A stretch of DNA of 64,000 nucleotides, taken from positions 62,001 to 126,000 of the forward strand of contig CANFMT010000003.1 of NCBI GenBank assembly GCA_947448415.1, read 5' to 3'. A program made the translations under genes and the position numbers. Below, one piece after another: positions 67 through 6,134 of this stretch. The notes under the pieces are model-generated. The model saw only the letters and a list, made by a program, of their open reading frames with translations. It ran no database searches and was not told the DNA's origin. The stretch's first letter is position 1. The number at the start of each line of letters is the position of its first letter. The stretch is from Burkholderiaceae bacterium (GTDB taxonomy: Bacteria > Pseudomonadota > Gammaproteobacteria > Burkholderiales > Burkholderiaceae).

Positions 67-405
67 ATGACTCAAATCGTCGTACTACCGCATAGTGAAT
101 ATTGCCCTGAAGGTGCTGTTGTTGAAGCTGCGCCTGGAACTTCGATTTGCGAAGCTTTACTAGAGAATGACATTCCGATTGAGCACGCATGTGACATGGT
201 TTGTGCCTGCACCACCTGTCACGTTATTGTGAAAGAGGGCTTTCAGAGCCTAAATCCTCCTGATGAGAATGAGGAAGACATGCTTGATCGTGCTTGGGGC
301 CTCAATCCTCAGTCCCGTTTATCTTGCCAAGCCATTGTTTCTAAAGAGGATTTAGTGATTGAAATCCCCAAGTATTCAATCAATCACGCTAAAGAGAATC
401 ATTAA
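67..405 (+). CDS. fdx: ISC-type [2Fe-2S] ferredoxin
   Basis: A 112-residue cytoplasmic ferredoxin that donates electrons during iron-sulfur cluster assembly by the ISC machinery. The cysteines sit at 42, 48, 51 and 87, in the same pattern and nearly the same numbering as E. coli Fdx (motif ACTTCH), with an extra Cys46. The length equals the family norm. The downstream hairpin at 524-552 suggests it is the last gene of the isc operon. The acidic stretch around residues 66-72 is typical of the family. The assignment is secure; the only uncertainty is which of the paralogous ferredoxin names would be used. Confidence 0.93.
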   Translation: MTQIVVLPHSEYCPEGAVVEAAPGTSICEALLENDIPIEHACDMVCACTTCHVIVKEGFQSLNPPDENEEDMLDRAWGLNPQSRLSCQAIVSKEDLVIEIPKYSINHAKENH

Positions 406-2891: not shown

Positions 2892-3620
2892 TTATTTATT
2901 AACGTGTAAACCACATTCTTTGCTATCGCTTTGTAGCCACCACCAGCGGCCAGCACGAATATCCTCACCCTTCTTGACCTGACGGGTGCAAGGCTCGCAG
3001 CCAATGCTGGGGTAGCCCTTAAGGTGTAATGGGTGAATCGGAACGTTTTCTTGTTTGATGAAAGCCCAGATATCAGCCTCGCTCCAATCAAACAAAGGAT
3101 TGAATTTGGCGATGCCTCTAGCATCATCTAGTTCTTCTAAATTAAGTTCGGTGCGAGTAGTTGATTGCTCACGTCTTTGGCCAGTAAGCCAAGCATCAGC
3201 ACCAAGCAGTGCCGCATTCAGTGGTTTTATCTTGCGCGCACCACAACATGCTTTTTTGGGCTCTTCACCATCGTAAAAACCATTCATGCCATATTGATCA
3301 ACAAAGGCCTGAACATCATCTTCGTTTGGATATACTTTTTCTATTGATATGCCGTAATGGTCTTCAGTAGTGTTGACCATGTCAACAGTTTCCTGATGAA
3401 GACGACCAGTGGCTAAGGTAAATAATTTAATGTTGGCGCCAGCCTTGGCGATAGCATCAGTAACCACCATGTCTTCTGCAGCCAAGCTGGTTGCAAAACG
3501 TACATCAGAAAAACGCTTGGTAATATCGATTAAGCGCTGCTTTAAAGCGGCAGACTTTTGAGCAAGCTCAGCGGGGGTAAGCGTGCTCGGCGAAATGGAC
3601 CAAAATTCTGGTGCAATCAT
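2892..3620 (-). CDS. cysH: Phosphoadenylyl/adenylyl-sulfate reductase, FeS type
   Basis: Reduces APS (or PAPS) to sulfite using thioredoxin. The 242-residue protein has the four cluster cysteines of the [4Fe-4S] class, Cys125-Cys126 (KACCGARK) and Cys208/Cys211 (GCEPC), plus the catalytic Cys236 in ECGLH near the C-terminus. The presence of the cluster and the absence of any cysC in the window favour APS as the substrate. That is inference, since some cluster-containing enzymes use both. The start codon overlaps the end of the TauE/SafE gene by 4 nt, showing tight coupling. No sulfite reductase gene is visible here. Confidence 0.93.
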   Translation of the reverse strand: MIAPEFWSISPSTLTPAELAQKSAALKQRLIDITKRFSDVRFATSLAAEDMVVTDAIAKAGANIKLFTLATGRLHQETVDMVNTTEDHYGISIEKVYPNEDDVQAFVDQYGMNGFYDGEEPKKACCGARKIKPLNAALLGADAWLTGQRREQSTTRTELNLEELDDARGIAKFNPLFDWSEADIWAFIKQENVPIHPLHLKGYPSIGCEPCTRQVKKGEDIRAGRWWWLQSDSKECGLHVNK

Positions 3621-4411
3621 GAGGTAACTAGCTTAACGCCAACTAAAAACAATGTCGCTGCAAGAGTGGTTCTAGTTGTTCGCTCAGATAGAGTGCTTGA
3701 CAGCTTTGCGCCCAACCAAATTGCCGGAACTGAGCCCAGCAAGAGGCCAAACAACAAATCGAAGTGCACGTTACCAAGCCACCAATGACCTGCTCCAGCC
3801 AGTGCCGTAAGAGGAACAGCATAAGCAATGTCAGTGCCAGCAACTTGTGCGGGTTTTAGGTATGGGTAAAGAACCAAAATCAGTGTGGCACCAATGGCAC
3901 CTGCTCCAATTGAAGATACTGTGACCAATACACCAATCACAGCACCAACAGAAATAGTTGCAATTTTTAAATTAGTGCCGCTTGGTAAAAAGTTTGGATT
4001 GTCTTGAACCCATTTCAAAATCTTTGCTCTAAATAATAGCGATGCTGCTGTTAGCAATACAGATATGCCAATTGAGATGCTAATTACGTGATTGAAATCT
4101 TTAGAAACTGGGCCAATGAACCTTAAGGCAAGAATTGAAAGAATAGCTGTAGTCAGGCTGCCGATACAAAGTAACTTCACTATATCCCAGCGAACATTGC
4201 CGTGAAGTCTATGCGCAGCAGTGCCAAAACCTTTTGTAATTGCTGCGAAGGCTAAATCGGTTCCAACTGCTGTTGTTGGAGCAACCCCAAATATGATGGT
4301 TAATAGAGGGGTCATTAATGAGCCGCCCCCCACACCGGTCATCCCTACCAATAGACCTACTAGTGCGCCGGAAATAATAAATTGTGAGGAGTCTTGAAAG
4401 AATTGCAGCAT
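3617..4411 (-). CDS. TauE/SafE-family sulfite exporter/permease
   Basis: A 264-residue integral membrane protein with about eight hydrophobic segments in two homologous halves. The first half has a glycine-rich GMTGVGGGS stretch (about 23-31), typical of TauE/SafE. Family members move sulfonates, sulfite or related anions across the inner membrane. Placed first among the recognisable sulfur genes and overlapping cysH by 4 nt, it could either import a sulfur source or vent excess sulfite. The sequence does not decide which. It begins 18 nt downstream of a 54-residue ORF on the same strand. Confidence 0.85.
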   Translation of the reverse strand: MLQFFQDSSQFIISGALVGLLVGMTGVGGGSLMTPLLTIIFGVAPTTAVGTDLAFAAITKGFGTAAHRLHGNVRWDIVKLLCIGSLTTAILSILALRFIGPVSKDFNHVISISIGISVLLTAASLLFRAKILKWVQDNPNFLPSGTNLKIATISVGAVIGVLVTVSSIGAGAIGATLILVLYPYLKPAQVAGTDIAYAVPLTALAGAGHWWLGNVHFDLLFGLLLGSVPAIWLGAKLSSTLSERTTRTTLAATLFLVGVKLVTS

Positions 4412-4429
4412 TAGATTTCTTTGGTTGAT

Positions 4430-4594
4430 TTAGATAAGAGACTGCTCAAACTCTTCAAGTTTGATAGCGTTCATTAGAAAAAGAATTTGGCGCTGAAAAC
4501 TTTTGCGCTCGACAATCTTGTCATGGGGTAGGCGGTCATGTTCACGCAATAACTTTGTAATGACTGGGTTGTAGTGTTCGCGCACTGGCGACAT
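4430..4594 (-). CDS. Small conserved-looking ORF leading the cys operon
   Basis: A 54-residue ORF (starts MSPVREHYNP, ends EEFEQSLI) that I do not recognise. Support comes from a good ribosome binding site (AAGGAA, 5 nt before the ATG), position 18 nt ahead of the TauE/SafE gene on the same strand, and a charged, helix-compatible composition with no signal peptide. It could be a small regulatory or accessory protein of sulfur metabolism, or a leader peptide. It has only a glutamate-rich C-terminus and no cysteine, so it is not a cysteine-attenuation leader. Its leader RNA can form three hairpins (see 4603-4691). Confidence 0.6.
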   Translation of the reverse strand: MSPVREHYNPVITKLLREHDRLPHDKIVERKSFQRQILFLMNAIKLEEFEQSLI

Positions 4595-4602
4595 GGCAAT
4601 TC

Positions 4603-4637
4603 CTTGGTAAATATCTCGTTATATAGAATTTACCAAG
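4603..4637 (-). promoter_or_regulatory. Hairpin covering part of the ORF54 ribosome binding site
   Basis: Perfect 10-bp inverted arms (4603-4612 and 4628-4637, CTTGGTAAAT / ATTTACCAAG) are separated by 15 nt. Read on the minus strand, the 3' arm ends in AAG, the first half of the AAGGAA ribosome binding site of the 54-aa ORF. If the RNA forms, translation initiation would be partly blocked. It could equally be a DNA operator. Confidence 0.6.
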
Positions 4638-4641
4638 CGGT

Positions 4642-4666
4642 CTATATATCCACAAGGAATATATAG
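4642..4666 (-). promoter_or_regulatory. AT-rich inverted repeat with anti-SD-like loop
   Basis: 8-bp arms CTATATAT / ATATATAG flank a 9-nt loop. Read on the minus strand, loop and arm give ATTCCTTG, perfectly complementary over 8 nt to CAAGGAAT at the ORF54 ribosome binding site (plus-strand 4599-4606). It is a candidate alternative pairing partner for that site, or a LysR-type (CysB-like) operator. Confidence 0.5.
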
Positions 4667-4668
4667 CG

Positions 4669-4691
4669 ATATCTAAATTACTTTTAGATAT
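4669..4691 (-). promoter_or_regulatory. Third inverted repeat, just after fpr
   Basis: 9-bp perfect arms ATATCTAAA / TTTAGATAT with a 5-nt loop, 16 nt past the fpr stop codon. No T tract follows, so it is a poor terminator. The heptamer TATATAG recurs at 4620, 4660 and 4689, hinting at a repeated protein-binding site. Confidence 0.45.
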
Positions 4692-4706
4692 ATAGAGTCA
4701 GATTAT

Positions 4707-5483
4707 TTACTTTTCTACGAAAGCGCGCTCAAAGACGTAATCACCCAACTGACCAAGGCTTGGAGAGACTTTGAAGCCTTTAGCATCGAGCATCTCAGAG
4801 GTTTCTTTGAGCATAGATGGGCTGCCACAGATCATGGCACGATCGACTGCTGGATCGAGTGGCGGGAGTCCAATATCTTTAAAGAGCTGACCGGTTTCGA
4901 TAGCAGTTGTGAGTCGACCAGTATGTTTGAAGGCCTCACGCGTCACCGTTGGGTAATAGATGAGCTTTTCACGAATGAGTTCGCCCAAGTATTCATCTTG
5001 AGTCAGTTCATTTTTAATATAGTCTTCGTAAGCTAATTCGCTTACCAAACGCACTCCATGAATGAGAACAACCTTCTCAAACTTCTCATAAGTTTCTGGG
5101 TCACGAATGATGCTCATAAATGGCGCAAGGCCAGTACCAGTGCTAAACAAGTAAAGATGTTTCCCTGGGTTTAAGTCATCCAGTACAAGGGTGCCAACAG
5201 ACTTTTCGCTCACGAGAATCGGGTCACCAACCTGAATTTTTTGGAGACGTGATGTAAGAGGGCCATCTTGAACTTTGATACTTAAGAACTCGAGATGCTC
5301 TTCATAGTTTGGGCTAGCAACGCTATAAGCGCGCACCAATGGTTTGCCTTCAACCTCAAGACCAATCATGAGAAAGTGTCCGCTACGAAAGCGTAGGCCT
5401 TTATTGCGAGTGGTGGTAAAGCTAAATAGGGTGTCGTTCCAGTGGTGAACGCTCAGGACTGTTTCGGTGTTGTATGCGGCCAT
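4707..5483 (-). CDS. fpr: Ferredoxin--NADP reductase
   Basis: A 258-residue FAD enzyme that moves electrons between NADPH and ferredoxin or flavodoxin, cytoplasmic. The FAD-binding RAYSVAS motif is at about 54-60, the NADP-binding STGTGLAP stretch at about 115-122, and the short C-terminal tail (FVEK) is typical of the bacterial class. It sits 112 nt upstream of the sulfur operon on the same strand. Read-through could supply reductant genes together with sulfate reduction, but a separate promoter is equally possible. The gene itself is a firm call. Confidence 0.93.
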   Translation of the reverse strand: MAAYNTETVLSVHHWNDTLFSFTTTRNKGLRFRSGHFLMIGLEVEGKPLVRAYSVASPNYEEHLEFLSIKVQDGPLTSRLQKIQVGDPILVSEKSVGTLVLDDLNPGKHLYLFSTGTGLAPFMSIIRDPETYEKFEKVVLIHGVRLVSELAYEDYIKNELTQDEYLGELIREKLIYYPTVTREAFKHTGRLTTAIETGQLFKDIGLPPLDPAVDRAMICGSPSMLKETSEMLDAKGFKVSPSLGQLGDYVFERAFVEK

Positions 5484-5651
5484 AAATGCGTATTAGTTAG
5501 AAGATAGCAAAACGTTGATTATCCCATTCTTGAGACTAGAAATTGGGCCTAAAACTGCCAAAAATAGGACTCTGTAGTGATATAAACCGGACTTTTAGTA
5601 ATAAAGAATCAATTTATAGGGCCAGTTAAGCCTATTGGCTATCATCTAGTA

Positions 5652-6134
5652 ATGAAAAGAGCCCAGTACCTATTCCTATCTATTTTTAGCTTCAGTGTGG
5701 TTATTTTTGCAGTGCTCTTGCAGCAGACTGGATACCAGGGCGTGAGCTTCTTGCCATGTCCTTTATGTATTTTGCAGAGGGTCGGCTATCTCGGGGTTGC
5801 GATTTCTTGCCTTTTGGCTGCCGGTATTACGCAATTGAAAAAGTTATTTCACGGCCTGGCAATTTTAGCTGCAGGGTATGGCGTAGCGGTTGCCGGACAT
5901 CATGTTTGGCTTTTATCTAATCCAGGTGAGTCCTGTGGAATAGATCCTTTGGAGCTCTGGATTAATCAATTTCAGGTAGTTAACCGACTACCTTGGCTAT
6001 TCAAGGCAGATGGGCTTTGCTCAGCAAACCTTCCTGCCATTTTAGGTTTGCAAGTACCGGAATGGTCCTTGTTGTGGTTTGTGACTCTCTTGCTGATTTT
6101 GCTGATTACCTTTTTTAGAAAACCTAAGGCGTAG
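5652..6134 (+). CDS. dsbB: Disulfide bond formation protein DsbB
   Basis: An inner-membrane quinone reductase that reoxidises periplasmic DsbA. The 160-residue protein has four predicted transmembrane helices. The first periplasmic cysteine pair is C36-P-L-C39, followed by the usual QR, and the second pair is Cys95 and Cys123 in the second periplasmic loop. Length and cysteine spacing fit the family. No dsbA is adjacent, so it appears to be a single-gene unit between divergent fpr and downstream cysK. Confidence 0.92.
   Translation: MKRAQYLFLSIFSFSVVIFAVLLQQTGYQGVSFLPCPLCILQRVGYLGVAISCLLAAGITQLKKLFHGLAILAAGYGVAVAGHHVWLLSNPGESCGIDPLELWINQFQVVNRLPWLFKADGLCSANLPAILGLQVPEWSLLWFVTLLLILLITFFRKPKA

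What the first reader, a model, noticed from the sequence alone, without database searches (positions are those of the whole stretch)
4595..4706. Sulfur-operon leader with three hairpins and a possible RNA switch over the ribosome binding site
Between fpr and the 54-aa ORF lie three perfect inverted repeats (arms 10, 8 and 9 bp) in under 90 nt. The one next to the start includes half of the AAGGAA ribosome site in its 3' arm. The middle hairpin carries ATTCCTTG, which can pair over 8 nt with the same site. TATATAG occurs three times. This looks like a translational or attenuation switch on sulfate assimilation. Alternatively it is a dense operator region for a CysB-type regulator.
Basis: partly seen in the sequence, partly recalled or inferred. 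Interest (0 to 1): 0.75.

Follow-up and report, generated by a model that had tools for sequence, protein, structure and literature searches.

The report
Promoter hidden inside ribosome-blocking hairpin
In freshwater Polynucleobacter bacteria, the short gap between a ferredoxin-reductase gene and a tiny uncharacterised gene holds a conserved, predicted promoter whose core is complementary to the tiny gene's ribosome-binding site, so RNA running in from the first gene would likely keep the tiny gene silent while RNA started at this promoter would likely leave it readable.

Summary
The three inverted repeats are real (0 of 1000 shuffles) and lie in a leader conserved across Polynucleobacter (93 distinct copies), but they are not one RNA switch. 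Repeats 1 and 2 look like two halves of a DNA operator for a LysR/CysB-type activator: conserved sequence, fixed spacing, overlap of a predicted -35 box. Repeat 3 is different. Its 5' arm is a predicted extended -10 box (TGnTAnAnT in 88 of 93), its 3' arm covers half of the Shine-Dalgarno, and the predicted start of transcription lies between them. The arms change together: Shine-Dalgarno occlusion exceeds all 60 tree-simulated nulls and falls when 5' halves are swapped between species. Best reading: RNA reading through from fpr hides the ribosome site; RNA from the internal promoter lacks the 5' arm and is translated. This is the known T4 gene e / B. subtilis sigG principle, here at a chromosomal sulfur-linked locus. 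The constant target is the 54-aa ORF: in 50 of 93 copies no tauE or cysH follows it. No transcript data were available; start site, regulator and read-through are inferred.

The parts
4707..5483 (-). fpr, ferredoxin/flavodoxin-NADP reductase-like gene; likely source of read-through RNA
   Evidence: found in 165 of 186 genus genomes
4669..4695 (-). Repeat 1 (arms 4683-4691 / 4669-4677) with its 5' flank: predicted upstream half of a LysR-type operator, centre 4680, about -60
   Evidence: no RNA covariation; similar half upstream of cysI
4642..4666 (-). Repeat 2: predicted operator half overlapping the -35, centre 4654, about -34
4650..4655 (-). Predicted -35 box TTGTGG (TTG near-invariant)
   Evidence: 17-nt spacer in 92 of 93
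4627..4635 (-). Predicted extended -10 box TGGTAAATT (TGnTAnAnT)
   Evidence: strict pattern in 88 of 93
4628..4637 (-). 5' arm of hairpin 3, overlapping the extended -10
4620..4620 (-). Predicted transcription start (A), centre of hairpin 3; 26-nt 5' leader
   Evidence: inferred from the -10 position
4603..4612 (-). 3' arm of hairpin 3
4601..4605 (-). Shine-Dalgarno AAGGA, its first three bases in the 3' arm
   Evidence: 4604, 4603, 4601 invariant; 4602 in 92 of 93
4430..4594 (-). 54-aa ORF, the gene whose translation is likely gated
3617..4411 (-). tauE/safE-type gene, followed by cysH (2892-3620), cysD and cysN; behind the ORF in 43 of 93 copies only

Best explanation
A predicted internal promoter with a likely CysB-type operator sits between fpr and the 54-aa gene, and its predicted extended -10 box is complementary to the region of that gene's ribosome-binding site, so read-through RNA from fpr would fold a hairpin that hides the site while RNA started at the internal promoter would lack the 5' arm and be translated. 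Shown directly: the inverted repeats, the near-invariant promoter-like columns with fixed spacing, the overlap of the 5' arm with TGnTAnAnT and of the 3' arm with the Shine-Dalgarno, and the linked change of the arms across the genus. Inferred: that the promoter works, that it starts near 4620, that CysB or another LysR-type activator drives it, and that fpr RNA reads through. The expected effect is that the 54-aa protein, and in this genome perhaps the closely following tauE-cysH-cysD-cysN genes, is made mainly when the internal promoter fires, likely under sulfur limitation.
For: Promoter: TTG at 4655-4653 (1.91/1.91/1.83 bits), TG at 4635-4634 (2.00/1.79), and 4632, 4631, 4629, 4627 (1.91/1.91/2.00/1.83), against 0.15-0.78 bits at 4641-4638 and 4633, and 1.09 and 1.28 at 4630 and 4628. 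TGnTAnAnT in 88 of 93. -35 to -10 spacing constant in 92 of 93, while the distance between hairpin arms varies from 30 to 33. Hairpin: the cost of freeing the Shine-Dalgarno at 25 C is 8.10 (sd 2.30) kcal/mol in read-through RNA, 1.55 (sd 1.13) in RNA from the predicted start, 2.75 with the 5' segment shuffled; 89 of 93 reach 4 kcal/mol in read-through RNA, 1 of 93 in start-site RNA, and 82 of 93 differ by 3 or more. Simulation of the 3' arm along a coding-sequence tree gives 6.79 (sd 0.33, maximum 7.40), 0 of 60 reaching 8.10. Swapped 5' halves give 4.36; native is higher in 84 of 93 leaders and 11 of 16 arm types. G-C to A-U at 4633-4607 in four places of the tree, C-G in L085, A-U at 4634-4606 in L133. 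A sub-clade (L019, L136, L137) lacks the common stem and has another, CCUCU/AGAGG, over the same site. No terminator-like site on the minus strand between the genes. Regulator: the genome has a CysB homologue, 43% identical to E. coli CysB, E 8.7e-87; 30 cysI upstream regions match the upstream operator half (mean best score 12.30 vs 2.22, sd 0.62, shuffled, 0 of 60; relatedness not removed).
Against: No transcript data. The simple sigma-70 scan finds no promoter in 4400-5700; the -35 is weak, and L092 has lost its TTG. Pair-by-pair covariation is modest (hairpin 3: 918 paired cells vs 889, sd 15, P 0.013; same-branch double changes 3 vs 1.0, P 0.09), and part of it comes from one clade. Only 55 of 93 leaders beat all 40 of their own 5'-segment shuffles. 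Linked changes could be mutational: repeat 2 also has excess double changes (4 vs 0.76, P 0.003), and in L092 its centre reads inverted, both expected of template switching at palindromes. Four of 93 leaders stay below 4 kcal/mol (L080, L112, L127, L125), and 5 of 16 arm types do not beat foreign arms. The 14 loci without fpr directly upstream are mixed: L017, behind an opposite ORF, still shows occlusion (5.31 vs 1.34), and L030 and L111 keep a cost of 5.4-5.7 in start-site RNA. Apart from the resemblance at cysI no second operator was found; the own-genome pattern searches gave only this site or control-level hits and did not return the cysI region.
Confidence: 0.6

Rival explanations
1. The main transcript starts upstream of hairpin 3, so every mRNA carries it, and the hairpin is a conventional leader brake or sensor (thermometer, ligand or small-RNA target).
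For: The hairpin is stable (-17.3 kcal/mol for the 73-nt piece) and covers the Shine-Dalgarno; the sequence between the arms (TAACGAG) is fairly conserved.
Against: The 5' arm carries the pattern of an extended -10 with variable n positions and fixed spacing to TTG, which an RNA stem would not need; no Rfam family matches.
Confidence: 0.15
2. Repeat 3 is a DNA operator centred on the start of transcription, for example a repressing site of CysB or another dimeric regulator, and its pairing as RNA is incidental.
For: The palindrome is centred on the predicted start; E. coli CysB is proposed to repress its own promoter from sites spanning the start (PMC11329422, passages).
Against: Arm spacing varies (31-33 in 92 of 93, 30 in one) although operator spacing does not; half-site letters change in a matched way; one clade replaced the stem by a different one.
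Confidence: 0.12
3. The matched arm changes are mutational: template switching at a palindrome keeps copying one arm onto the other, without selection on RNA.
For: Excess double changes in repeat 2 and an inverted centre in L092.
Against: The -10 letter T at 4632 stays (92 of 93) where its partner has changed to T (12 cells); a different stem in L019, L136 and L137 is not explained by copying the old arms.
Confidence: 0.08
4. One reading: ATTCCTTG of the middle hairpin pairs with the ribosome site as an alternative fold.
For: 8-nt complementarity; most cells stay paired.
Against: Both partners are near-invariant for other reasons (-35/operator and Shine-Dalgarno); the predicted fold uses hairpin 3 instead.
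Confidence: 0.03

Closest known systems
Phage T4 gene e (also soc, 49, I-TevI) read-through hairpins (PMC3014915, PMC2988022; passages seen)
   Same: Ribosome site hidden in longer, upstream-initiated RNA; a promoter in the 5' strand makes shorter RNA that lacks the 5' portion of the structure.
   Different: There a phage late promoter times expression and the effect is measured; here a bacterial chromosome, a sigma-70-like extended -10 with a predicted LysR-type operator, and no experiment.
Bacillus subtilis sigG read-through hairpin (PMC5942855; passages seen)
   Same: Chromosomal gene; a large hairpin is proposed to block translation of read-through RNA from spoIIG and cannot form in RNA from the sigG promoter.
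   Different: sigG encodes a sporulation sigma factor and its stem has over 20 pairs; here about 10 pairs and a 54-aa gene of unknown function next to fpr.
IS10-type protection of transposase from outside transcription (recalled, not read here)
   Same: A fold-back structure in outside-initiated RNA hides the start of translation.
   Different: Mobile element; no operator of this kind.
CysB-activated cys promoters of enterics (PMC11329422; passages seen)
   Same: Activating site centred 50-60 bp upstream of the start; a CysB homologue is present here.
   Different: Here long, conserved palindromic halves at about -60 and -34; the CysB consensus is described as very weak, so the regulator cannot be named by sequence alone.

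Membership tests
Read-through occluding hairpin with internal promoter (T4 e / sigG kind) | Hairpin that hides the Shine-Dalgarno in RNA from an upstream promoter | tested here: met
   By prediction only: 8.10 kcal/mol mean occlusion, above 60 of 60 tree-simulated nulls
Read-through occluding hairpin with internal promoter (T4 e / sigG kind) | Promoter placed so that its transcript lacks the 5' arm | tested here: inconclusive
   Conserved extended -10 and TTG predict a start between the arms; consensus scan negative; no 5'-end data
Read-through occluding hairpin with internal promoter (T4 e / sigG kind) | Read-through RNA exists and is poorly translated | not testable with these tools
   fpr is co-directional and no terminator-like site was found on the minus strand; needs RNA and protein assays
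LysR-type (CysB) activated promoter | Two palindromic sites, near -65 and overlapping -35, at fixed spacing | tested here: met
   the defining positions are recalled LysR knowledge and the start is predicted
LysR-type (CysB) activated promoter | Same site in front of other cys genes | tested here: inconclusive
   Upstream half resembles cysI upstream regions; downstream half not consistent in place; no other site by pattern in own genome
LysR-type (CysB) activated promoter | CysB binds and activates | not testable with these tools
   CysB homologue present
Known riboswitch or leader family (Rfam 15) | Match to a covariance model | tested here: not met
   No match at E up to 1 in 4300-5000

The most novel reading that the evidence does not exclude
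A genus-wide origin filter on mRNA: in Polynucleobacter the core -10 box of a sulfur-regulated promoter is itself the anti-Shine-Dalgarno, so translation of a new 54-aa sulfite-reduction-linked protein depends on which promoter made the RNA, and promoter and ribosome site have co-evolved base by base, including one clade that rebuilt the block with a new stem.
Probability: 0.5. Interest if true: 0.6.

Novelty: new member of a known kind. Interest (0 to 1): 0.45.

Why it matters
It would carry a principle documented in phage T4 and proposed for a sporulation gene to an ordinary chromosomal locus of freshwater bacteria, with 93 natural variants that show how a promoter and a ribosome site can be constrained as one object. 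It also points to a conserved, unnamed 54-aa protein as a candidate sulfite-reduction gene: 102 of 105 genomes with it have a cysI match, against 45 of 81 without it.

Tried and rejected
Known RNA family: no Rfam match. Simple promoter scan: nothing, so the promoter rests on conservation. Middle-hairpin anti-Shine-Dalgarno: rejected as primary, see rivals. Repeat 1 as an RNA hairpin: rejected, pair 4688-4672 is formed in 47 of 92 and there is no covariation. Second operator: pattern searches in the own genome gave only this site or hits at control level; a matrix scan found none in four cysH loci away from ORF54 (L158, L159, L161, L162) nor in 13 fpr loci of genomes without an ORF54 match (L140-L152). 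Bidirectional promoter from the palindrome: the mirrored -10 would need A at 4613, which is A in 12 of 93. G-U bias as proof of the transcribed strand: looked at and judged ambiguous. The 14 loci without fpr directly upstream as a natural experiment: mixed, not used as support. Literature: searches with Polynucleobacter plus sulfate-reduction terms or plus CysB and hairpin terms listed nothing on this leader (listings only); CysB with Burkholderia gave nothing usable; a search for IS transposase protection gave no paper that I opened.

Rows dropped before counts: identical copies were merged to 107 distinct ORF54 loci; 93 with fpr directly upstream were analysed, 14 are told apart. The start position for the 93 used a pattern list that includes the exceptions; the strict TGnTAnAnT count is 88. 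Of 147 cysI genomes only the 30 best-scoring loci were aligned. Of the 50 fpr-type loci without tauE the first 45 were printed; in 44 the longest frame behind the ORF is on the other strand, and L087 ends 37 nt behind the ORF, so it cannot be judged. cysH was searched in 20 chosen genomes and matched in 6. Of 175 protein hits the best 120 were listed; the names shown are Polynucleobacter, most hits have none.

Full report
Observation. Three non-overlapping inverted repeats of this size in 112 nt occur in none of 1000 dinucleotide shuffles. The genes on the minus strand run fpr (5483-4707), the 54-aa ORF (4594-4430), tauE (4411-3617), cysH, cysD, cysN (cysD and cysN named from their sequences and order, not scanned). 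The genus is Polynucleobacter, from names carried by protein hits.

Conservation. fpr was found in 165 of 186 genomes of the genus and the 54-aa ORF in 105 of 186; all 105 are among the 165. In 24 genomes of other families of the order there was no ORF54 match. Merging identical copies left 107 ORF54 loci, 93 with fpr directly upstream. In those 93, 37 of the 53 columns from 4694 to 4642 carry over 1.5 bits.

What the leader is attached to. 43 of the 93 have tauE and cysH behind the 54-aa ORF and 50 show neither in the stretch held; in 44 of the 45 printed, the longest frame behind it lies on the other strand. Of 20 chosen genomes 6 had a cysH match; 12 that keep leader plus ORF54 had none. 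In G002, which has two ORF54 copies, the copy in front of tauE and cysH carries the operator without fpr next to it. So the constant target is ORF54, not sulfate assimilation. The link to sulfur remains: 102 of 105 ORF54 genomes have a cysI match against 45 of 81 others (Fisher P 1.2e-12, not corrected for relatedness), and by their coordinates cysI lies about 600 nt from fpr on the other strand in G126, G096, G124, G087 and G138.

Promoter. The conservation profile has a clear shape: TTG at 4655-4653, operator, four variable positions (4641-4638), then C-TTG-n-TA-n-A-n-T at 4637-4627. TG and the first, second, fourth and sixth -10 positions are near-invariant and the n positions vary. TGnTAnAnT is exact in 88 of 93. 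The spacer is 17 nt in 92 of 93. That is the form of an extended -10 promoter with a weak -35, as expected when an activator overlaps the -35 (general knowledge). The start would be the A at 4620, leaving a 26-nt leader. A consensus scan that needs a better -35 does not call it.

Operator. Repeat 2 (centre 4654) overlaps the -35; repeat 1 (centre 4680) lies 26 bp upstream; the distance between them is constant in 92 of 93. Repeat 1 shows no covariation as RNA (713 paired cells against a null of 705, P 0.27; one pair formed in 47 of 92). Repeat 2 is nearly fixed, with a few matched changes of both arms and, in L092, a centre that reads inverted, which also removes TTG. This is the geometry of LysR-type activators (recalled). 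The genome has a CysB homologue (43% identity, E 8.7e-87). Upstream of cysI in the 30 relatives aligned there is a CTATATATCTA-TAAGTTATATAG-like element and, in many, a box containing the complement of ATATTCCTT; the upstream half of the ORF54 operator scores far above shuffles there, the downstream half less and not at one place. CysB as the regulator is therefore an inference. The CysB consensus is described as very weak (PMC11329422, passages), so sequence alone cannot settle it.

Repeat 3. Its 5' arm (4637-4628) overlaps the extended -10 and its 3' arm (4612-4603) runs into the Shine-Dalgarno. 79 of 93 leaders form at least 8 of the 10 pairs, 4 form 6 or fewer. The cost of freeing the Shine-Dalgarno at 25 C is 8.10 kcal/mol on average in RNA that reads through, 1.55 in RNA from the predicted start, and 2.75 when the 5' segment is shuffled. 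Three tests ask whether the arms are linked. Pair counts on a tree built from coding sequences exceed the null modestly in total (918 vs 889, sd 15, P 0.013) and clearly at 4633-4607 (0 of 300 simulations); same-branch double changes do not reach significance (3 vs 1.0, P 0.09). Simulating the 3' arm along the tree and folding each leader gives 6.79 (sd 0.33) against 8.10 observed, 0 of 60. Swapping 5' halves between species lowers the occlusion to 4.36, native being higher in 84 of 93 leaders and 11 of 16 arm types. Matched changes are visible at 4633-4607 in four places of the tree, with single cases in L085 and L133. In one small clade (L019, L136, L137) the common stem is gone and CCUCU, just upstream of the predicted start, faces AGAGG at the Shine-Dalgarno, with 5.7-7.9 against 2.9-3.5 kcal/mol.

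Mechanism. RNA from the internal promoter would start between the arms and have a free ribosome site; RNA from upstream would carry both arms. This makes translation conditional on the promoter of origin. Phage T4 gene e, soc, 49 and I-TevI work this way (PMC3014915 and PMC2988022, passages), and the same is proposed for sigG read-through RNA in B. subtilis (PMC5942855, passages). The T4 text also places the late promoter in the region that encodes the 5' strand, as here. So the kind is known and this is a new member.

Limits. No transcript evidence was available. The linked changes could partly come from template-switch mutation, for which repeat 2 offers hints. The 14 loci without fpr directly upstream do not give a clean contrast. 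AlphaFold2 predicts a confident two-helix hairpin for the 54-aa protein (mean pLDDT 95.5, 31-sequence alignment), which does not name its function; no fold search was run.

Noticed in passing
L092, operator centre (alignment): In one genome (G085) the centre of repeat 2 reads CACAAGG instead of CCTTGTG, an inversion between the palindrome arms that suggests template-switch mutation and removes the -35 TTG.
   Followed up: no
window 4430-4594: 54-aa protein family without Pfam or NCBIfam match, 175 hits in the protein search, named hits all Polynucleobacter, predicted two-helix hairpin; co-occurs with cysI.
   Followed up: partly
L134, L139, L021: Second ORF54 copies in G141, G186 and G002; those in L134 and L139 carry stop codons, and L139 still has the operator and hairpin while L134 shows none.
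   Followed up: no
G126, G096, G124, G087, G138 (coordinates): cysI lies about 600 nt from fpr on the other strand, which links this Fpr to sulfite reduction.
   Followed up: no
L074 (G195): Behind ORF54 a ferredoxin frame like that at window 67-405 lies close by, as if the tauE-cysH-cysD-cysN block were missing there.
   Followed up: no
L025, L030, L111: Where tauE precedes ORF54, another short stem (CCTAAA/TTTAGG) covers the Shine-Dalgarno; only L025 shows a clean difference between read-through and start-site RNA.
   Followed up: partly
upstream of cysI, L171-L200: Conserved operator-like and promoter-like sequence in front of sulfite reductase, a good second site to test CysB binding.
   Followed up: partly
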